From positions 6,071 to 70,070 of the forward strand of contig NW_003207237.1 of the NCBI RefSeq assembly GCF_000006405.1: a stretch of DNA of 64,000 bases, read 5' to 3'. This document shows positions 3,746 through 63,162 of this stretch, one piece after another. Under the pieces are notes generated by a model. That model did not search any database. It was not told the origin of the DNA and saw only the letters and a program-made list of their open reading frames with translations. This DNA is from Perkinsus marinus ATCC 50983. Its lineage: Eukaryota > Perkinsozoa > Perkinsida > Perkinsidae. A program made the translations under genes and the position numbers. Each line of letters starts with the position of its first letter. The stretch's first letter is position 1.

Positions 3746-4731
3746 CCAAATGAGATGATAACTGAGATGAATACATTGAGAACGGTGACATTCAATACCA
3801 CGAATACGAGCTAGGAGTTCTATTGTTGAATATTGGAGAAACAGCTGTTAGGACTTAGAAACGGCATACCAAGGATCCTGGTGCCAAAATAAGTACCATG
3901 GCAATGAAGACAACGAAACACTTGAAAGGGTATCGTTCATGGACGCAATACAATGTCTTTCCTTTCCCCAGATGCCTCATAGCAAATAAAGCCTTGGCGT
4001 TCAAGAAGATGCGCCTCCTGTACTGATCACAGCAAGCGTGAACGTTGTGCACGTTTCACATAGTTGTTGGAGTCCCCTATTCTGCTGTGCCAATGGCTGC
4101 CCGTAACTTCTCGACCTCCGTCCGGTCATACCGCTTTTGGATCTACTGAACTTGTACACGAGCCTAGTGTATTACTAGAATATTAATGAGTTACTAGTAG
4201 AAAATCAGTCTCCTTCAATCAGACCGTTCTCACCCACTTCGTCCGCTCTTCTCGTGTATTCTCTAGATGCTCCTTCGCTTGACCAGCTAGAGGAGCGGTC
4301 TCCCTGCTAATTCCTCAAGGATGGTGCAACTACAGTTACTTGATATCAAAGCTCGGGTGGCCTCTACTGCTCGCAACGGAACTGAACCGCCTCATTTAGG
4401 ATGTGTCGCAGCGGCGGATGCGGTGCGAGATTATCAATACGGTACAATCAGACCTGAGCTTTTCGCAACAACCTCAGCTCTCTATTCCACGCGCACACTC
4501 TCCTTGGCACTCATTCCGACTGAAAATTAATCGAATTCACTCTGCCTAAAGGCCGCTACGACAACAATCTCGGTGATTATAGTGTCGGACTCCGACACTA
4601 TAATCACCGGCAAATCGGTGGCCGTCAAATGCCTTGGAGGTTTTGCCCAGTGCGGGCGAGCGAGATTTTTTACATTTGGTCACCTGCCACGGATTTTGGG
4701 ATCTGCCTCTCCAAGTGAAGTTGCAGACTCG
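3746..4731. other. Intergenic region between divergent SPRY gene and NSUN5
   Basis: Roughly 1 kb upstream of both genes, so it should hold both promoters. One 69-codon open frame with an ATG (4321-4530, +) has an ordinary composition and may be a small protein or upstream ORF, but nothing supports a function. The palindrome at 4571-4609 lies here. Confidence 0.4.
4571..4609. repeat. Near-perfect 39-nt palindrome upstream of NSUN5
   Basis: Arms of 19 bp (CGGTGATTATAGTGTCGGA and its exact reverse complement) meet at a single central C (4590). It lies 123 bases upstream of the NSUN5 start codon, so it is in the promoter or 5' UTR. As RNA it would fold into a long, practically loopless hairpin. 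Confidence 0.85.
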
Positions 4732-6164
4732 ATGTCGTTACTGTACAAAGACGCAGCAGCTGTTGTGGATAAAGTCATATCGCATGGTGTTGGCCTTAGG
4801 GAAGCTTTCTACAAGTCTAAGCTGAAGAGTACTAATCCACAGAAAGTCTACGCGTTAGTGTGCAAAACGGTTAAGTCCAGGAAACGTATAGAATCGGCGT
4901 TGCGATCAGCGGGTATTCTGGACACCCTAGGGGATCGCAGTCTCGGCCTCGTCATGGCCTATGACTTGATCTACGGTCAAGGCCTTCGCGGAGGCGGCAA
5001 ATTGGCTCGAGTTTTGAACGAGAAAGCGGCTATTTTGAGGAAGGCGGTTAGCGATGACCAGTCCAGTAGCAGTGAGGATAAGCAGCCTGCTCAGCTCCCA
5101 CGATATGTTCGTGTGAACTTGGCAGAAATCTCCAGGGAAAGTGCTATCGAACAATTAGGCTCAGCTGGTATCAAATCCAAGGCAGATCCACTGATTCCTG
5201 ATGTAATAATCTCAACACTGCCGTCTAAAGATGTGATATGATATTTCAGGTTATAACTGTAGATCCTTGGAATTCCAAGGCGCTCATCGAGTCTCCTCTG
5301 GTCAAAGACTTTACCCTCGTACTACAGGACCGTGGCAGCTGCTTGTCCGCGCACTCTTTGCTGGCCGGCGTTCAGCCAGGAGAGAAAATCACAGTCGTAG
5401 ATGCATGTGCTTCTCCTGGTTCCAAGACGATTCACATGCTACAACTAATGAGGTATCGTAAGATAGAAGGTACTATGGTAGCAATGGAGCTTGATCCTAA
5501 ACGGGCAAAGGTGCTACTGGACCGTCTGGCAAAGGCTGGTTTCTTACCACGAGATGGGACGAGAACTTCTGAAGAAGTTGCTCATCTGTCTGCGGCGCAC
5601 AGCCCTGATATCAATGTTGAAGTACGTGTTGGTGATTTCATCAAGTACAGCTCTGCCGAGGTCACCCATGTAAACTTGGACCCGAGCTGCAGTGGTTCTG
5701 GATTGGTCGATGTTCACGCTGACTCTGAGAGTGTCGGCGCCCAGCGGCTCCGCAAGCTTTCATCATTCCAATGCCGAATGTTGGACCATGCCTTGACGGC
5801 ATTCCCCGCTGTTCAGACCGTGTGCTACAGCACATGTAGTATCAAGAACGAAGAAAATGGCGAAGTTGTGAAGAAAGCTCTTAATAGACTGCAAAGCGGG
5901 TATAGACGGGAGTGGCCTTTTGAAGTGGGGTCCTGTTGGAAGGAGCCGACTCACGGCGCTCGAGACGTTCAAGTTCGACCTGAAGTGGATCACTGTCGGG
6001 GTTTCTATCTCTGCAAACTCGTCAAAGACGCTAGTGTGAAGCGTAGGAGGTCGAGTGACGACGCTACTGGTGTGGGAGAAGTGTCGGCTCCAAGTGCGTC
6101 TAAAAGTAATCCTAAGAAGCACAAGCGCTCTTCGAAGAGCAAGGGCATTACTATTACCAAGTGA
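4732..6164 (+). CDS. NSUN5: rRNA cytosine-C5 methyltransferase, NSUN5/Rcm1 family
   Basis: Exons 4732-5202 and 5250-6164 join across a 47-nt GT-AG intron and give 461 residues. The start MSLLYKDAAAVVDKV matches the NSUN5 N-terminus. Further along are QLPRYVRVNL (the family's LPRFVRVN), LVLQDRGSCLSAH, the SAM-binding motif VVDACASPGSKT, LDPSCSGSG with the motif IV cysteine, and CYSTCSI with the motif VI cysteine used in catalysis; FYLCKL is near the end, followed by a Lys/Ser-rich basic tail typical of nucleolar proteins. NSUN5/Rcm1 makes m5C in the large-subunit rRNA in the nucleolus. The reading frame extends upstream to 4573 only with non-ATG codons, so 4732 is taken as start. Confidence in the family is high because both catalytic cysteines and the N-terminal region agree with NSUN5 rather than NOP2 or NSUN2. 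Confidence 0.9.
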
Positions 6165-7664: not shown

Positions 7665-8747
7665 TCAACGAGCAGCTATCAACATGGGAACATTAATAGA
7701 CTGCATCATGTCCGCCCAGACTGGGTTCGTGCTTCCGAATCCCTTGAGGGTAACGGTCATATCTTTGCCGTCTTCCAGGTTCTTGGCAAGAGCCTTCGAA
7801 AACTGAGCGGTAGCTCCACCGAGGGTAAACCAAGTCGCGGTCGCGAACTCAGTGTTTTTTCTGAGCTTGATGCCAAGAGAGCCGACAGACAATATTGCAC
7901 CAACTTCCTCGTCATTCGAGTTTAATGAAGCAAGAAACCTGCCCATATCCCATATAGTGAAGTTGGTTGGGTTGAAGAATTTGAATTTGCTGAGGTAGAC
8001 CGCTTGCTCTATAGTGCTTTGTGCTGGTACGAATTGCATATCGAAGATCCGCGGCTGATAGTCACGGAAGTTGTTGAAGCCCTCGATTTGGATATCTCTC
8101 TTGAGTTCCAAACCGGCCAAAGGTACCCACCAACTCCTACCACCGATATCAGATGCTCTAACTGCAACGACAGAGGATGGCTCAGTGATGATAGCCGAGC
8201 CGAATCTGGTGAATGCCGTCTTGTTTGTAACCACTATGAACACCGTCTCGTTGATGCTGGTGTGGCCACTACCAAGAGACATAACTGGCATCCTTATAGA
8301 CGCGAATCTTGCCTCGTTATAGTACAGATTGACGGTGAATTCATCCAACTTCACCTCGAGGAGTGTCGGGTTATCAACACTGAACACTATGGTGGCACCC
8401 AGACACGCACTAACGGTTGATCCAGCACAAGTTGTAATATTAGTCCCGTTGACGGCGACTGACTCCACGCTTACCATACCATCGTCCAATAGTCCTTGAG
8501 CCAATCTAGGACCAAAGAAGAATGTAAGTAGGAGCGCCACAGTAGCCACAATGGAAGTGCAACTTATAAGCAAGCAGCTCCGATAGCCATTCTTGTCGAG
8601 CCTGCCGAAGCAGTAGCGTTTGCCACCCGAATCGGCTCTAGCTTTGGCTCGGAGCTTCTGATGTCTGCATGCAAGTCGCTCCTTGTATAGTTCCTGTTCT
8701 TCGAGATCCAATTTACTAGGAGTATGCCTTCTGGACCTCCTAACCAT
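7665..8747 (-). CDS. Single-pass membrane protein with LEA-like / DUF3712 ectodomain
   Basis: One uninterrupted 360-codon frame from ATG at 8747. Residues 1-55 are basic and cytosolic. A membrane helix follows (LLISCTSIVATVALLLTFFF, about 58-78). The rest looks like two LEA-type beta-sandwich repeats: ATIVFSVDNPTLLEVKLDEF with FASIRMPVMSLGSGHTSI, then KFKFFNPTNFTIWD. Alternating beta strands, the 'NPT' turn and an outside-facing location match the LEA14/DUF3712 type found in fungi and protists. Many N-x-S/T sites (NGTN, NETV, NKTA, NFTI) fit exposure to the secretory lumen or cell surface. Such proteins may bind lipids or help in stress, but the role here is unknown. No intron is visible, unlike most neighbours. 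Confidence 0.65.
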   Translation of the reverse strand: MVRRSRRHTPSKLDLEEQELYKERLACRHQKLRAKARADSGGKRYCFGRLDKNGYRSCLLISCTSIVATVALLLTFFFGPRLAQGLLDDGMVSVESVAVNGTNITTCAGSTVSACLGATIVFSVDNPTLLEVKLDEFTVNLYYNEARFASIRMPVMSLGSGHTSINETVFIVVTNKTAFTRFGSAIITEPSSVVAVRASDIGGRSWWVPLAGLELKRDIQIEGFNNFRDYQPRIFDMQFVPAQSTIEQAVYLSKFKFFNPTNFTIWDMGRFLASLNSNDEEVGAILSVGSLGIKLRKNTEFATATWFTLGGATAQFSKALAKNLEDGKDMTVTLKGFGSTNPVWADMMQSINVPMLIAAR

Positions 8748-41861: not shown

Positions 41862-42287
41862 ACCACACCTTTAATAAGTTTACAAAGATACACGAAAATA
41901 ACTCGGTAAGCGAATTACCAGGCCAGACTAAGTATAGACTCAAGACCAGGTCTTACCGCGCCATTTCCCCAGATGAGCTTGATAAGTTCATACAACAGTC
42001 TTACGTATTAATAACACACCACTATGGCCAGCTCTGGGATCCATAATTTTGGGACCAACACAAATTGAAAAACGTGACAACGTGACGCGACAAAAGAGCG
42101 GAGCGATGCAGTCAGAATGTGGTTGAGTTGATCTTCCGCTGTCTAGCATAATGGATTGTCGTATCGCAAGGCACTGTCAACTGTCCCCCAAACTTGTTAC
42201 TTGGCTTGTATGGGGTAAATTCGAGGGAAGTAAGAAGAGATGTGCCGATTCCCCCTGTCTATTCAGTATGATTTTCAATTTGTGGTG

Positions 42288-44922
42288 ATGGCGATAGAAG
42301 AGTCGTTGGTGCTCCCTGTCGGCACACTGGTAGTATCCTTATTGTGGGGTCTGAAGATTCTATCCAGCTACGCAAGTAAGGATACCAGCCTATTCCAGTT
42401 TGTGATGGTGTACTGCGGTATGGCTCTTGCGGTAACTACCTTCATACTGTTGCCGTACGATATATGCTTTTCGAGAACTAACGAGCATACAGAAATCCTT
42501 TCTGAGTCCTGGACTAGCGTCTATTGGGTTTCGTTCACTCTATGCTGGATAGCATACCCTATCATGTTGGAATACGAATCCGTCCACTCTATAAAGAAGG
42601 CTCTCCGCAACAATGCTATCTGGTACCTAGCATACGCCTGTGCTGGACTGTTGATCCTGGCTTACTTGTGGTACATGCAGCGGCTTGGTCTGCAAGGTAT
42701 ACTTGGATTCATCTATGCTGCTTCCAATGCATGGGGTCTGGTATTGGTCACTCTGCTGTTGGGGTATGGTCTAGTGGCTGTACCGCAGTGGTTGCATGTG
42801 TTGTCATATGACAAACGCCATATGGAAGCTATCTATGCTCAGGTGGTATCGGCAGAAGATGTAATAAAGGGAGCGTGTGTAAACACTAGGCATGTTGAAG
42901 AGTAGACTGGAAGTGATCTGCGAGAGGAGTCTTTGACAGGAGTTCGGCATAGTAAATTTATTGCCTTGTGGAATGCGATGAAGTTGTTGCTATTGTGCCC
43001 TGCAGGCACGGCTTTCGGCGAAGTTCGACCTCATGGACGTCTTCAACCATTACCGTGATCAAGAGCGCGAATCAGGGCAGGGAGCTTCTAAGCAACTTGT
43101 AGTGACGGAGCAATGGACGCCAGCCATATGCTTGCGCACGAGTCTGTCACTATGGCATCCGGAGTAGATACGAGAAGCGGGAGAGTTTTTGGGCATTGCT
43201 GTGAATTTCTATGATGGACGGGATGAAGTTGTCTCCGAATGTCTAGAGGGAGACACTGAAGGTGACGTAGATCTCGTCAGCTAACTCTGGGGAAGGGTGA
43301 TGTAGGCACGCCATTGATACCAACGAACCTGTCCCTTGTGAGGCCTATCCCTTCCAAGGAAGATTTGGAATTGTCCAGTGCCTTGGCCACGGCGAGGCGT
43401 AGTCAGCATAGGTAGTATGCTCGCATCTTTCTCTTCCCTAAAACTCGATTATAGGTGGTCTGACTTGATAGAGACAGGATGGGCGTTGGAGGACCGTTTA
43501 GCAGATGAGAATATTCCTGTACCTTCGCAAAGGAATGCATCACAAAGACTACGAGACTCAATTGTAAGGCATTATAGCACAGAAAGTCTTGCTCGACTGT
43601 CGAGCAAAACTTCACAATGACGCCACTTACTTCATAGTGGAGTTAGTAGCGAGATGGAAGGTTTCCGTCATAGCGCATGAATGGGCATGTATCCAATCAG
43701 ATTGGATACAGTGACCACTGTAGTAGAATATTCGTTGTAGGTGTCCGCGAGGCATTCTCTACTCCCATACCTCACGCGTATCACCGCACTATTCTGTGCG
43801 ATTCTAAGCATTGGTATAATAGTTGGACAGGTGAGATACGATCCAGGCTGCTACTATGATACCCTTTATTACTAATAGAATAGTCTTCATTTTAGGCTAC
43901 CATGTTCTGGGGCTCAAAGTGGTCCAGTTTGCTCGCCCTCGGATACGATGAACTCTTGTGGCTGCTCGATATCATTCAGAAAGGTGCATCATTTCATGTA
44001 CCATCCTGACGGAGAGTCAGTCTTCAGATGGCTATGTGTCGCCGGTATACGTCGCAGCATTGGGCCAGTTCGTTGTTGGCTTACCTTTGCTGTATGTTGC
44101 CGGTTGTTGCTTTTGGTCGCTGTTTCGGATCAAGGTTGCTGGGACNNNNNNNNNNNNNNNNNNNNNNNNNNNNNNNNNNNNNNNNNNNNNNNNNNNNNNN
44201 NNNNNNNNNNNNNNNNNNNNNNNNNNNNNNNNNNNNNNNNNNNNNTTGTCGGTGTGAATCAAGGAATCTCTGTCAGGTCGGATGTTCGGAACTCCGACAT
44301 CCACGGCTCCAGTAATAGGCCAGGAATTTGTCATCTACTTCCCTTTGCTAGTTTTGGTAAGTCTGTAAGTATCGATTATACCGCTATGATGATTGATCGG
44401 TAGGTCTTTTCACTACTCCAGCTCACTAACACGTACCATCGCCTCGTTCGAGCTCTTGGTCTGTCGTCAACATTCGAATTTGAAGGCAGTGGTCTTCGTG
44501 CAGATGCGCCGACAGTGGAGGAGGTATTTATACTCTTATATATAGACAGATCGGATTGCCCTTTGTTAGGGCCGTAAATTGTTACGACGCGAGCGGCTTC
44601 GTCGAAGGAATCAGACGGATCTTGAATCTGGCCGACCCTCTCAATACAGTATGGTGGCCTTCCACAGAGGAGTCTCGGAGCTTCGTGACTACGAGCCGAC
44701 TCAGGAGGATCTCCACGTCGTCGTTGCTGACCGGTGAGCCGATCATGACTCTCTCATATTTCACCCTATGACATCCGGTTTATGTTCCTGCTGTTCTCGG
44801 GCAGGTCGCCTAGTGAGGGAACGCCGTTGGTCGCCATACAGAGAGAGAACAGCAGGGAAGAAGATCCGGACTGGCTTTTGGCCGATCGTGATATGGCAGA
44901 CATCCCTCGGGAGCTCCCATGA
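42288..44922 (+). CDS. LMBR1-domain multi-pass membrane protein (LMBD2-like), spans gap
   Basis: ATG at 42288 starts in the first membrane helix (SLVLPVGTLVVSLLWGLKIL). The LMBR1 pattern follows: VTTFILLPYDICFS (family 'FLLPLDVS'), SVYWVSFTLCWIAYPIMLEY, NAIWYLAYACAGLLILAYLW, and [20 protein letters not shown] with AVPQW, closely matching LMBD2 '[24 protein letters not shown]'. Later exons give RLSAKFDLMDVFNHYRDQER, more helices around the N gap (GLPLLYVAGCCFWSLFRI), LTNTYHRLVRALGLSSTFEF and a basic, polar tail. A 71-nt intron (44734-44804) joins EDLHVVVADR to SPSEGTPLVAIQRENSR, ending at TGA 44920-44922. LMBD2 proteins have about nine helices; function is poorly known (receptor-linked signalling in animals). 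Part of the gene is lost in the gap. Confidence 0.8.
44146..44245. other. Assembly gap (100 N)
   Basis: A second 100-N placeholder, inside the LMBD2-like gene and just after a hydrophobic helix. Confidence 1.
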
Positions 44923-51961: not shown

Positions 51962-53594
51962 ATGCCCTCCAACAAGCATCACAACAATAAGCCTTGCCGC
52001 AACTGGGAAGAGACTGTAATGTCGGGATCGTTGGCTCAGCTTATTGAATCGTGTGCAAGAGTTTTTCTACAGGGGACTTGTCGGTACGGAGACTCCTGTA
52101 AATTCGTTCATGCCCAGCGGCGAGGAGTTTCATCATCTAATCCATTTGGAGGTTGGTCATACGATAGGACGGCTCACTTCACTAGGCTTCCCTCACAGGT
52201 GGCACAGTGTCTGCTTCGCCATTCGGTGGCAGCGGCGCAGGTGGGCAAGTGTCTGGGAACCCTTTCGGAGCTACAGCCACACCGGCACCAACTCCCTTTG
52301 GTGCTGGCAACGTCACGGCACCAACTCCCTTTGGTGCTGGCAACGTCACGGCACCAACTCCTTTTGGTAGTGGTAACGTCGCGGCGACGACTCCCTTTGG
52401 TGTTGGCAACATCACATCGTCGTCGCCGACTCCTCCTACATTCGGCGGCACACCAGGTGGTGGGTCTGGACCGTTCGGGAGCTCGAAGCCTGTAACATTT
52501 GGGGCGGCCGCCTTTGGAAGCTCACAACCATCGGGGTTTGGTAACGCAATAGGGACGAAGCCAAGTCCCTTTGGGAGTACTACATCGGGTGTATCCCCGA
52601 GTCCTTTCGGTGGTGGTGCAGCAACCCAACCGTCACCATTCGGCCAATCCAGTCCGCCTTCGCAATTGAGCAACGCGAACCCCTCTGCTTCAACTCTTGG
52701 GAATGCCACTGCACCTGCCACAACCATAGTGCCTCCATCGGGCATTTTGCCTGCCGCTACTGTTGTTGGGACTTTGGTACCGGACGAGAGCAACCGGAAA
52801 ATGAGAGAAGTAAGTGAATGTATTCCATGGTTGTATCAAGTAAGCTCCTTGGTGCTCCTCAGAACATCGCAACCGCGTTGAACAAGGGCGAGCTTTACCC
52901 TTTGTCTTCTTTTGGACCGGATGGTCAGGGCAACCTGACGCCGCCTGGCATCGACGTCAGCTTCGAAGAGCTCCGGTATGAGGACCCTCAGAACCAGCAT
53001 TTACGAGAAACTATCGCCAAGACGGAAGCAAGTCTCGAGAAGATTATTTCTAAGCCCACTCTGTCGAAATACTTTGGTATTGAGGGAACGGCGAAATCGG
53101 TATCGCCTTTCAGCGGAAATGCTGTCGCTCCCTCACCGTTTGGAGGAGCATCTGCCCAAAGTAAATCATCGCCCTTCGGTCCTGCAGCGGGGCCGAAGCC
53201 CTCGCCATTTGGTGCAACACCAGCAGCTACCTCAACAACATCCCCGTTTGGTGGATTCGGAAGCAGTCAATCCTCTGCAACGGGCTCTTTCGGAGGGTTC
53301 GGTAACGCCTTCGGTGGCCAGCCATCGTCATTCGGTGCCACTAGTGGGCCCTTCGGTGCTACTCAACAGTCCTCGCTTCTTCCTACTTTGTCATGGCCGG
53401 ACAACCTGGTGGTTCGACCTGGGATTCCTCCGAACAAGATGCCATCATGGATTTCCCGAACACCTTTAAATCTACTGCCTGAGATCAAACCGTCGAAGGG
53501 GCTATCGGAGGAAGATATCGAACGTTACAAGAATGCGGAATTCTCTTTGGATGCATTTCCGTCTCTGCCCCCTACCATTGAGCTACTCACGTGA
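51962..53594 (+). CDS. NUP42: NUP42/hCG1-type FG nucleoporin with CCCH zinc finger
   Basis: ATG at 51962. A 57-nt intron (52016-52072) joins the halves of one CCCH zinc finger: PCRNWEET + GTCRYGDSCKFVH, spacing C-x8-C-x5-C-x3-H. A second intron brings in an FG-rich part of more than 25 PFG/GFG units (NPFGATATPAPTPFGAGN and similar). A third intron (52810-52862) leads to a helical segment (EELRYEDPQNQHLRETIAKT), more FG repeats, and the C-terminus KGLSEEDIERYKNAEFSLDA then FPSLPPTIELL, matching the NUP42 Gle1-binding end ('FTLGNIPLVPPPRELC'). NUP42 sits on the cytoplasmic face of the nuclear pore and helps Gle1/Dbp5 in mRNA export. All three parts are in the expected order. About 430 residues, close to the human length of 423. 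Confidence 0.88.
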
Positions 53595-60715: not shown

Positions 60716-60969
60716 AGCCTGTGGCGAAGCCAGTAAGCGAACTCTACGTAGTGAAATCACACGACAATATGTATGCATACTAGAAGCTAACGCAACTTGA
60801 AGTCCAGAGTCGGGAAATCCGGTTACGAAATCTATGCATCTGAGACGCATTTCAAGCTGATGATGTGAAAAGGGTATTAAATAATAATGAATGAGTGCTG
60901 ACAAATGTAATAGCTCCTCTTGTGTGGTCAATTACCACACCAAGACTTTAAGGAGCTTCAAGTTGAGCC

Positions 60970-62808
60970 TCAGACTCCGCTTGGTTGTTGATGTTGACGC
61001 CGAGCCGACTGAAGATGGCTTGCAATGTAGGACGGTTGACTAGTGATAACCCCAGTCGTCCCAATGCGGCCAGTCCCCTTCGGTGGCTGAATATCAGTTG
61101 CCTTTGGCGTCATTCTTGGGAAGGCAGTGTGCCCCGGTGCTTGCGCTAGAGGCGTCACCCCAACAGCCGTCAACCAATCGGTCGGCATAGTGGTAGCTGT
61201 CTGGTCAATCTCCTCATGAGGCTGAGTCTGCTTATCGAGATGCCAGTGGGTGGCCTTGACGAAATCGTACCTATCTATAGAGCCAAGACGAATCAAGGTC
61301 TCCTTCAAACCCTGCTTCACTTGAGTGACGCGGCGCTGCTTATTGAAAGATTCACTGCGCTTGCGAGCAACTGGCCAATTTGCAATAGAGTTGAACTCCT
61401 CCTCAAAGGGCGAATAACTCCTGAAGTCATGAATACTCTCCTGACCCATGAACCGAGGGAACTCCTCCTCGAAGGGGCTCACAGTAGTATCCTCAGGCAA
61501 GGGGGTTGCGTCAATGTGCTCCGCAGCAGGAAAGCTCCCCACTCTAGCTCTCAAACTCGGATTAACATTACTTTGCATCCAAGTCTGAGAAGGCACGTCC
61601 ACATCTTGGAGATGCGGGAAGCTCTCATCGAAAGGACTGACCGTAGGATCTTCTGGCAGAGGCGAGTAGTCGACGTTCTTAGTTGGGAATGTACCGATGT
61701 TAACAGTGAGGTCGGGATTCACATTGCTCTGGCAGTAGCCCTGTAGGTGAGGGAAATCCTCGTCAAATGGGCTCTCCGACATATCCTCAGGAAGAGGTCT
61801 CGTGTCACACTTTTTGGTGGGCATGGTACCATCCTTAGCACGTAACGTGGGATTCACGTTACTCTCCCAGTAGGAGCTTGGTAAAGGGAAATGCTCGTCG
61901 AAAGGGCTAACACTGTCGTCCTCGGGCAGGGGCCTCATGTCGATCTTCTTAGTAGGCAGGGTACTATGAGCAACCGGTAGAGTCGGGTTCACATTGCTAG
62001 TCATAACGTGCTGAAGACGGTTCTCGTCCGCTGGGATCGGCCACTCTTCGTCGAAGGGACTCACAGTGTTGTCTTCATCCAATGGCGTCGAGTCAGCGTG
62101 AACGGTTGGGAATGTGTTGCTCCTAACCCGCAGATTCTTGTTGACATTGCTCTGAATCAGAGTCTTCTGGTCAGTGAGCATGTCCCACATATCGTCAAAT
62201 GGGCTCACAGCAAAGTCTTCTTGAATAGGAGCCGAGCCGATCTTCTTGCTGGGTAGACTACCAACGTTCACAGCTAAGTGTGGATTGACATTACTCATCT
62301 TGTGACTCTGAAGGATCGGGAACTCCTCGTCGAAGGGACTAACAGAAGCATCCTCGGGTAGAGGAGTCCTGTCTATGTGCTTAGTAGGGAGAGTCCCAAT
62401 GTGAACCTTCAGACTCGGGTTCACGTTGCTACTCTGGATGCCTTGGCATACAGCACAACGGTGCTTCTTGTTAATGCTGTGTCTTCTACCAGTCTTAGTA
62501 TGAGAGATTGAGTTTGGGGACATCATAGGCATGTCCACGATGACATGAGAGGACTGGGAGGAAGTCGAACCCGAAGGGAGACGCAAGCCCTTAGAGATTG
62601 CCTTGTTTGCCTTGATGCCTAGATTAGTGTTCTCTTGGAAGCCTCCCTTATTCAGCTGAGGCAGCTGGAAGTGAGACCAGCCTCTCTGACCGGCTGAGTG
62701 AAGGTATTGCAGAGGCACATCCGACTTGTAGGAGTGGTGGTCCGTGTGACCGTACTTATTAGTGGTCCTCGATATCACAGCGCTAGCAGGTTGCTGGATG
62801 AGGAACAT
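60970..62808 (-). CDS. Protein with seven tandem ~45-52-residue SNVN...SPFDEEFP repeats, unknown function
   Basis: A single 612-codon frame without introns from ATG at 62808 to the stop at 60970. Residues 1-126 are basic and polar with one CxxC (CAVCQ, 118-122). Residues 127-472 are seven repeats starting at 127, 172, 220, 271, 316, 361 and 413, plus an eighth broken one (SPFEEEF, 466-472). Each reads SNVNPxL, a short variable part, [TS][LFM]P[TS]K..D..PL.ED, then [ST]VSPF[DE][ED]x[FW]P and a spacer of 6-15 residues. The C-terminal 140 residues hold one basic region (VARKRSESFNKQRRVTQVKQ) and disordered sequence. No signal peptide or membrane helix. The fixed hydrophobic/acidic motif in loose spacers looks like a multivalent docking scaffold. 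No known repeat family matches in my memory. Confidence 0.85.
   Translation of the reverse strand: MFLIQQPASAVISRTTNKYGHTDHHSYKSDVPLQYLHSAGQRGWSHFQLPQLNKGGFQENTNLGIKANKAISKGLRLPSGSTSSQSSHVIVDMPMMSPNSISHTKTGRRHSINKKHRCAVCQGIQSSNVNPSLKVHIGTLPTKHIDRTPLPEDASVSPFDEEFPILQSHKMSNVNPHLAVNVGSLPSKKIGSAPIQEDFAVSPFDDMWDMLTDQKTLIQSNVNKNLRVRSNTFPTVHADSTPLDEDNTVSPFDEEWPIPADENRLQHVMTSNVNPTLPVAHSTLPTKKIDMRPLPEDDSVSPFDEHFPLPSSYWESNVNPTLRAKDGTMPTKKCDTRPLPEDMSESPFDEDFPHLQGYCQSNVNPDLTVNIGTFPTKNVDYSPLPEDPTVSPFDESFPHLQDVDVPSQTWMQSNVNPSLRARVGSFPAAEHIDATPLPEDTTVSPFEEEFPRFMGQESIHDFRSYSPFEEEFNSIANWPVARKRSESFNKQRRVTQVKQGLKETLIRLGSIDRYDFVKATHWHLDKQTQPHEEIDQTATTMPTDWLTAVGVTPLAQAPGHTAFPRMTPKATDIQPPKGTGRIGTTGVITSQPSYIASHLQSARRQHQQPSGV
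61393..62430 (-). repeat. Coding tandem repeat array, 7 copies plus a partial
   Basis: DNA of the repeats above; unit lengths are 135, 144, 153, 135, 135 and 156 bases between successive SNVN codons. Codons differ between copies (SNV written with AGT/AGC AAT/AAC GTG/GTT/GTA) while the protein motif stays the same, so the array is old and kept by selection on the protein. Confidence 0.85.
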
Positions 62809-63162
62809 TCGTTAAATAATAATCAAATATGATAACCTACGGCCGAATCTTAGGTTTGCCGGAGCTACGAAGGGCCCAATGAGGGATAAAGATCCAATTA
62901 TGTCCACGTCGAACTCGAATGGGAACGCGTGTCAGTTGATAATTTAGCTATCTGGAGGCGCCCGTATTCGTGATCGACACAGCCCTCTTGTTGATCCTGC
63001 GCCGTTAATATCGCGCGCGCCCGAAGTGGAAGACGGCTACTAGTCTGTGTGAGTGAGTGGGAACATTCTGCTTTCAGTTCGGTGGTTCTCTGTGTGAATT
63101 AATCCGCCAGGAGCTCGCGCCGCATTACTGAGAAAAGGACGTGTTTCACCTGATGTCGCAGG
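62809..63162. other. Intergenic between divergent genes
   Basis: About 350 bases with no coding signal; contains a GC-rich stretch near 63005-63020 (GCGCGCGC). Should hold the promoter of the repeat protein (-) and of the last gene (+). Confidence 0.5.

What the first reader, a model, noticed from the sequence alone, without database searches (positions are those of the whole stretch)
60970..62808. Undescribed seven-copy SNVN...SPFDEEFP repeat protein
Seven tandem units of 45-52 residues keep two fixed islands, SNVNPxL and SPF[DE][ED]x[FW]P, with a third P[TS]K..D..PL.ED between them, while spacers drift in length and sequence. The DNA of the copies has diverged at silent sites, so the protein motif is under selection. 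An aromatic/acidic core in a disordered spacer, repeated seven times, is how endocytic and scaffold proteins offer many low-affinity docking sites. The gene has no intron although nearly all neighbours do. I know of no named repeat like this.
Basis: partly seen in the sequence, partly recalled or inferred. Interest (0 to 1): 0.75.

Follow-up and report, generated by a model that had tools for sequence, protein, structure and literature searches.

The report
Perkinsus-only disordered repeat protein family
A gene of an oyster parasite (Perkinsus) encodes a probably floppy protein that repeats a short, strongly conserved aromatic motif eight times, most likely as an array of docking sites for an unknown partner, and a sister gene carries the same motif.

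Summary
The repeat is real. The 612-residue single-ORF gene lies on the minus strand at 60970-62808. The match to a P. marinus protein is 99%, to P. chesapeaki 78%. Units are 1:1 orthologous between the species. Silent sites between units are near saturation, and the two copies in the assembly give dN 0.0056, dS 0.049.

New here: a second gene (C266; relatives in P. chesapeaki and P. olseni) shares the C-terminal module and has five SPF...F motifs but no SNVN. The persistent element is [S/C]P[F/W][D/E/S]xx[F/W/Y]; SNVN...PL.ED is specific to one paralogue. In the genome all 12 matches to one coded form, SPF[DE]xxFP, lie in this family. No Pfam or NCBIfam match to the whole protein, no credible PDB match, and no named homologue outside Perkinsus.

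Best reading: a disordered scaffold of acidic di-aromatic docking motifs, working like, but not a member of, PEX5/PEX13 WxxxF/FxxxF motifs. Partner unknown. DPF and NPF are absent. A lineage-specific orphan family of moderate interest.

The parts
60970..62808 (-). Single-ORF gene, 612 aa, Perkinsus repeat protein (paralogue A)
62296..62430 (-). Unit 1 (SNVNPSL at 62410-62430; SPFDEEFP at 62317-62340)
62152..62295 (-). Unit 2 (SNVNPHL at 62275-62295; SPFDDMWD at 62182-62205)
61999..62151 (-). Unit 3 (SNVNKNL at 62131-62151; SPFDEEWP at 62038-62061)
61864..61998 (-). Unit 4 (SNVNPTL at 61978-61998; SPFDEHFP at 61885-61908)
61729..61863 (-). Unit 5 (SNVNPTL at 61843-61863; SPFDEDFP at 61750-61773)
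61573..61728 (-). Unit 6 (SNVNPDL at 61708-61728; SPFDESFP at 61615-61638)
61453..61572 (-). Unit 7 (SNVNPSL at 61552-61572; SPFEEEFP at 61456-61479); its end was set by me just after the motif
61390..61413 (-). Eighth SPF motif, SPFEEEFN, without SNVN
61369..61488 (-). Paired-SPF module shared with the paralogue on C266 (SPF..FP..M..E..F...SPF.EEF....WP)
61303..61365 (-). Basic stretch after the paired module, basic in both paralogues; predicted helix, 10-residue block means of pLDDT 60-70
61231..61257 (-). KATHWHLDK, counterpart of RSYHEHLSK in the paralogue
61105..61122 (-). C-terminal FPRMTP motif, shared with the paralogue; the DNA pattern occurs 3 times in the genome, all in this family (reversed control 2)

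Best explanation
The gene encodes an intrinsically disordered scaffold of Perkinsus whose active elements are eight short linear motifs, (hydrophobic)-S-P-F-[D/E]-x-x-[F/W]-(P). Ser-Pro followed by an acidic residue is a good helix start (recalled chemistry), so each motif probably forms one short helical turn on binding. That would put two aromatic rings, four residues apart, and an acidic edge into a basic, hydrophobic groove of a folded partner; eight weak sites on one chain give avidity or recruit several partner molecules. The serine before proline is positioned for proline-directed phosphorylation, which could switch binding. The sister gene displays five of the same motifs in a different setting and shares the C-terminal module, so both probably use the same partner. 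The SNVNPxL...PL.ED cassette is a further element seen only in this gene. Shown: the motif, its conservation, the two-gene family, and that one coded form of the motif occurs in the genome only in this family. Inferred: disorder, the helix, the groove, the partner, phosphorylation.
For: The S, P, F and F/W positions of all 8 motifs are identical between P. marinus and P. chesapeaki (32 of 32 residues). Five motif positions of the paralogue are kept in all three species (15 of 15). Across these 31 instances position +3 is D, E or S in 31 while +4 and +5 vary; the S/C, P, F/W and F/W/Y positions were the search criterion, so their counts alone prove nothing, but 31 of 35 [SC]P[FW] sites carry the second aromatic. 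Species identity: SPFxxxFP 59 of 64, SNVNPxL 44 of 49, P..PL.ED island 72 of 92, rest of 127-473 116 of 142, N-terminus 75 of 126. Islands are held against saturated silent sites. No fold is predicted: mean pLDDT 36, with short helices starting just after the motif serine in four of eight motifs, all at pLDDT under 50. The paralogue keeps SPF motifs but no SNVN. A solved acidic, helical FxxxF precedent exists in PEX13 (PMC11024197, abstract and passages).
Against: No partner, location or expression data. Low pLDDT with six sequences in the alignment may reflect a shallow alignment rather than disorder. The proline after the second aromatic (18 of 31) limits helix length. One motif of the P. 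marinus paralogue has C in place of S, so the serine is not strictly needed. Residues between the islands are also conserved between species (82%), more than pure linkers would need, though two species are too close to judge. The whole-genome motif count covers one coded form only: W forms, forms without the last P and forms with S after the F are not seen by it (5 of 8 motifs of this gene match).
Confidence: 0.5

Rival explanations
1. Structural repeat that lies along a polymer. Each 45-52-residue unit is a ruler segment binding successive subunits of a microtubule or cortical filament, with SNVN, PL.ED and SPF..F as three contact points per unit.
For: Unit spacing is fixed in both species, residues between the islands are conserved as well, and three islands per unit is what a ruler with several contacts would show.
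Against: The paralogue scatters the SPF motif at irregular distances (residues 135, 159, 230, 263, 290) without SNVN, so the motif works without the ruler. No Pfam family matches the whole proteins.
Confidence: 0.2
2. Nuclear co-regulator. Acidic-aromatic motifs act as activation-domain-like sites (compare FxxxWxxL of p53-type motifs, recalled) and the basic stretch is a nuclear import or nucleic-acid contact.
For: Motifs combine acidic residues with two aromatics. Unit 2 reads FDDMWDML, an FxxxWxxL match. The repeat region has 16% D/E and 7% K/R. A basic stretch follows the paired motifs in both paralogues. A simple K[KR].[KR] pattern is found in 4 of 5 proteins.
Against: FxxxWxxL occurs in 2 of 31 instances, the same unit in two species. 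The proline after the second aromatic would break an activation helix. No DNA-binding domain is found by Pfam. A bipartite signal pattern is found in 0 of 5 proteins, and K[KR].[KR] is missing in the P. chesapeaki orthologue.
Confidence: 0.15
3. Multi-site phosphorylation sensor. The conserved SP sites serve mainly as kinase substrates or kinase/phosphatase docking, and the aromatics are kinase docking features.
For: SP in 30 of 31 instances (instances were selected for [SC]P).
Against: The aromatic at +6 is kept as well as the SP, which a bare substrate site does not need. The DEF docking form FxFP is absent from five whole proteins. One motif replaces S by C.
Confidence: 0.1

Closest known systems
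PEX5 WxxxF/Y motifs and PEX13/PEX19 FxxxF motifs (ligands of PEX14-NTD and, for PEX5 and PEX13, of PEX13-SH3)
   Same: Acidic di-aromatic motifs, two aromatics four apart; F...[FWY] in 30 of 31 instances; the PEX13 FxxxF motif is acidic and helical.
   Different: Wxxx[FY] in only 1 of 31; no Pfam domain of any kind; the fixed SP before the aromatic and frequent P after it are not part of the peroxin definition; PEX14_N and PEX13_N were not detected in the genome, but the control says that this search does not show absence.
   Same: Short aromatic/acidic motifs repeated in probable disorder.
   Different: FxDxF 5 of 31 (7 of 31 with W allowed); DP[FW] and NPF absent from five whole proteins.
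PAM2 motif (poly(A)-binding protein MLLE ligand)
   Same: SNVNP resembles the SNLNP start of PAM2 (recalled); an MLLE domain is present in the genome.
   Different: The alanine and the aromatic at PAM2 spacing are missing in 7 of 7 units.
ATG8-binding LIR motif
   Same: A loose pattern [DE].?[FWY]..[LIV] fits 15 of 31 instances.
   Different: Half of the instances do not fit, so it is not what is conserved.
Paralogue on C266 (L003) with relatives P0003 (P. chesapeaki) and P0005 (P. olseni)
   Same: Paired-SPF module, WP, basic stretch, H.HL.K, FPRMTP; SPF motifs throughout.
   Different: Five SPF...F motifs at irregular spacing, no SNVN and no tandem unit.

Membership tests
PEX5-type WxxxF/Y array | W-x-x-x-[F/Y] pentapeptides | tested here: not met
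   1 of 31 instances; the relaxed F...[FWY] fits 30 of 31
PEX5-type WxxxF/Y array | C-terminal TPR domain of PEX5 | tested here: not met
   0 Pfam families for the window protein at E<=10; also 0 for P0002, P0003, P0005
PEX14/PEX13 ligand | Binds PEX14 N-terminal domain or PEX13 SH3 | not testable with these tools
   PF04695 and PF04088 gave no match in the genome, but the controls rang nowhere
AP-2 appendage ligand | FxDxF or DP[FW] | tested here: not met
   FxDxF 5 of 31 (7 of 31 with W allowed); DP[FW] in 0 of 5 whole proteins. PF02296 was not found in the genome, control uninformative
EH-domain ligand | NPF | tested here: not met
   0 of 5 whole proteins
MAPK DEF docking motif | F-x-[F/Y]-P | tested here: not met
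   0 of 5 whole proteins
PAM2 | [LFP][NS]xxAxx[FYW] core (recalled pattern, simplified) | tested here: not met
   0 of 7 units
ATG8-binding LIR | Acidic, then [FWY]xx[LIV] (recalled, loose) | tested here: inconclusive
   15 of 31 instances
p53-like activation motif | FxxxWxxL | tested here: not met
   2 of 31, the same unit 2 in two species
Any Pfam-A or NCBIfam family | Match to a profile | tested here: not met
   Whole proteins: none at E<=10 (Pfam; NCBIfam, two proteins). Seven units: one weak Pfam match, E 0.18, in one unit
Microtubule or cortical-filament ruler proteins | Binds tubulin or filament with a subunit period | not testable with these tools
   Only unit spacing was measured

The most novel reading that the evidence does not exclude
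SPF[DE]xx[FW]P is a Perkinsus-specific docking code: a private helical di-aromatic motif, multiplied in two paralogous disordered scaffolds, that addresses one dedicated partner domain of a kind not yet known to read peptides. SNVNPxL...PL.ED would be a second, gene-specific code read in alternation with it.
Probability: 0.25. Interest if true: 0.6.

Novelty: new variant of a known kind. Interest (0 to 1): 0.4.

Why it matters
Proteins with many weak docking motifs in disorder are widespread, but few lineage-private ones can be read cleanly from sequence. Here two paralogues and two to three species pin the motif to a few fixed positions, so a partner search is feasible. It would give a handle on cell organisation in Perkinsus, a lineage near the base of dinoflagellates (recalled), where the homology searches made here give nothing. 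Within biology at large it is one more orphan family.

Tried and rejected
Known families: no Pfam or NCBIfam hit for whole proteins. Scanned unit by unit, one weak Pfam match (Parecho_VpG, E 0.18, 1 of 7 units) was rejected as chance. PDB: the whole protein gave only a hemocyanin match at E 0.57. The unit profile gave one chain, 8fje, E 3e-8. That score sums four matches to a 17-residue stretch of a repetitive 145-residue chain, with E-values of 1.3 to 600 one by one, and includes neither the SNVN nor the SPF island; I rejected it as a repeat-sum artefact.

Homologues outside Perkinsus: three protein searches. One search (E<=1) gave 3 hits, all named Perkinsus. One search (E<=10) gave 4 hits: three named Perkinsus and P0004, an unnamed record 94% identical to the paralogue. 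One search (E<=10) gave none. By the tool's length rule they cover about 337-1071, 207-658 and 715-2275 residues, and only relatives sharing exact 5-residue words. An orthologue of this gene in P. olseni was not seen; short gene-model fragments would have been missed, so absence is not shown. A further genome hit (C137, E 0.009) has stop codons inside and was taken as chance. A phage-record search gave no match. Structure models were too poor for a fold search, so none was run.

Literature: the locus tag with Perkinsus gave 0 papers. The motif strings gave 5 papers, 4 listed, all four for the letters SNVNP and none for the three SPF strings; listing only, unrelated titles. Perkinsus with tandem repeat and disorder gave 2, listing only. 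That I found the repeat undescribed rests on these searches. Listings not used further: except that PMC11024197 was seen as abstract and passages and PMC7789003 as passages. The alveolate peroxisome paper cited there was not read. FxDxF, PAM2, DEF, LIR, p53-type motif and helix-capping rules are recalled.

Rows dropped: one search lists 35 [SC]P[FW] sites in the five proteins counted. The 4 without an aromatic at +6 (three SPFKG/SPFTG sites and one SPFIPQV, all in the paralogue) were left out of the 31. P0001 and L002 (same species, 99% identical) and P0004 were not counted. A region labelled VSPFDEEFP in the script was in fact SPFDEEFP plus the next residue; the identity counts given here are the corrected ones.

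Full report
Observation. The ORF 60970-62808 is on the minus strand, 612 codons from ATG. Seven SNVN units and eight SPF[DE] motifs are present, against at most 3 such strings in 20,000 residue shuffles. Codons at invariant columns differ between units. Pooled over all 21 pairs of units (40-residue cores), pS is 0.80 and pN 0.29; the ratio is 0.18 in SNVNPxL plus SPFDEEFP and 0.51 in the rest (silent sites are near saturation, so the ratios are rough). Tandem Repeats Finder reports nothing at 60900-62900 at score 30. The repeat is therefore old and held at the protein level.

Species and copies. The protein search returns 3 proteins at E<=1: P. marinus PMAR014888 (99%), P. chesapeaki FOL47_003286 (78%) and a weak P. 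chesapeaki protein FOL47_000041. The assembly has a second copy on C164, 99% identical in protein. In the 30 kb of C164 compared, four pieces at 96-98% DNA identity are colinear with window 43715-64000. An allelic contig is the simplest reading; a recent segmental duplication is not excluded. Between the two copies there are 19 synonymous and 8 non-synonymous differences, dS 0.049 and dN 0.0056, so the coding sequence is under purifying selection.

Between species. All six unit-to-unit distances are the same (45, 48, 51, 45, 45, 52), and each unit is most like its counterpart (0.80-0.93 identity) rather than any other unit (0.20-0.64; ungapped, so unit 7 with its one-residue insertion scores too low against the others). 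The array predates the split of the two species and has not been homogenised. Identity by region: SPFxxxFP 59 of 64, SNVNPxL 44 of 49, P..PL.ED island 72 of 92, rest of 127-473 116 of 142, N-terminus 75 of 126, residues 474-612 111 of 139; the S, P, F and F/W of the eight motifs 32 of 32. The contrast between islands and linkers (about 90-92% against 82%) is modest at this distance; the contrast between units is the stronger evidence.

The family. The weak hit is a true paralogue. A 376-residue ORF on C266 (L003) and P. chesapeaki P0003 are 57% identical; P. olseni P0005 also belongs. With P0005 as query the window gene is recovered at E 6e-8 and its C164 copy at 3e-8, and nothing else beyond the paralogue itself at E<=1. 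Shared parts are the paired-SPF module, a WP, a basic stretch and H.HL.K and FPRMTP. The paralogue's ORF begins with TTG, so its true start is uncertain. It has five SPF...F motifs at irregular spacing and no SNVN.

The motif. Over 31 instances (8+8 in this gene of two species, 5+5+5 in the paralogue of three) the pattern is S30/C1, P31, F30/W1, D24/E4/S3, x, x, F26/W4/Y1, then P in 18; the preceding residue is V, Y, C, F or I in 28. The instances were picked by [SC]P[FW]...[FWY], so only what lies outside that pattern is free evidence: the acidic or serine residue at +3, and the fact that 31 of 35 [SC]P[FW] sites carry the second aromatic. In the genome, all 12 matches to a DNA pattern for SPF[DE]xxFP lie in the two copies of this gene (5 each) and in the paralogue (2), against 7 matches for the reversed control pattern. 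So the form is not found elsewhere, but about as many chance matches could have been expected and other forms of the motif are not covered. A stricter pattern gave 11, all in the family, control 1. FPRMTP gave 3, all in the family, control 2. The SNVN-type DNA pattern gave 45 sites, 14 of them in the two copies, control 21, so by itself it is not distinctive.

Structure. AlphaFold2 with six sequences gives mean pLDDT 36; only about residues 466-512 exceed 50, as helix. In four of eight motifs a short helix begins directly after the motif serine (residues 158, 203, 302, 445), all at pLDDT under 50. The paralogue gives pLDDT 32 with three sequences. This fits disorder, but a shallow alignment would look the same.

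How it probably works. I favour a multivalent docking scaffold. Ser-Pro-x-acidic is a typical helix start (recalled), and F...F puts two rings on one face. The nearest solved analogue is the acidic, helical FxxxF of PEX13, which the paper reports clamping onto a positively charged surface of its SH3 domain and also binding PEX14 (PMC11024197, abstract and passages). It works like that at most: the WxxxF/Y definition fails (1 of 31), no Pfam domain is present, and the SP...P frame differs. Endocytic, EH, DEF, PAM2 and p53-type definitions were tested and fail; a loose ATG8-motif pattern fits 15 of 31. The ruler reading remains the strongest rival because unit spacing and linkers are kept.

Verdict. 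A genuine family of probably disordered multi-motif proteins, found only in Perkinsus as far as three protein searches reach and without a name in the libraries searched. The kind of system is known; the motif and the family are new to those libraries. The partner and cell location are unknown.

Noticed in passing
52207-53594, + strand: Overlapping ORFs rich in SPFG/PFG repeats, with a 33-bp DNA tandem repeat at 52283-52415; looks like an FG-nucleoporin, no Pfam match.
   Followed up: partly
4573-6164, + strand: NSUN5/RsmB-F-like RNA methyltransferase split over two ORFs, as by an intron.
   Followed up: partly
42240-42905, + strand: ORF matching only positions 9-210 of 510 of the LMBR1 membrane-protein profile; the rest is probably in further exons.
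   Followed up: no
7665-8747, - strand: ORF with DUF3712 / LEA_2 match.
   Followed up: no
43715-64000 versus G000:C164: Second contig colinear at 96-98% identity over the 30 kb compared, probably the other haplotype; silent divergence in the repeat part of the gene (0.081) is higher than in the rest (0.016), on small counts (16 and 3).
   Followed up: partly
L019 about 465-745: Tandem array built on a GAACTGTTATACAGTT / GGCTGTTATACAAGGCAAC unit, near a long ORF.
   Followed up: no
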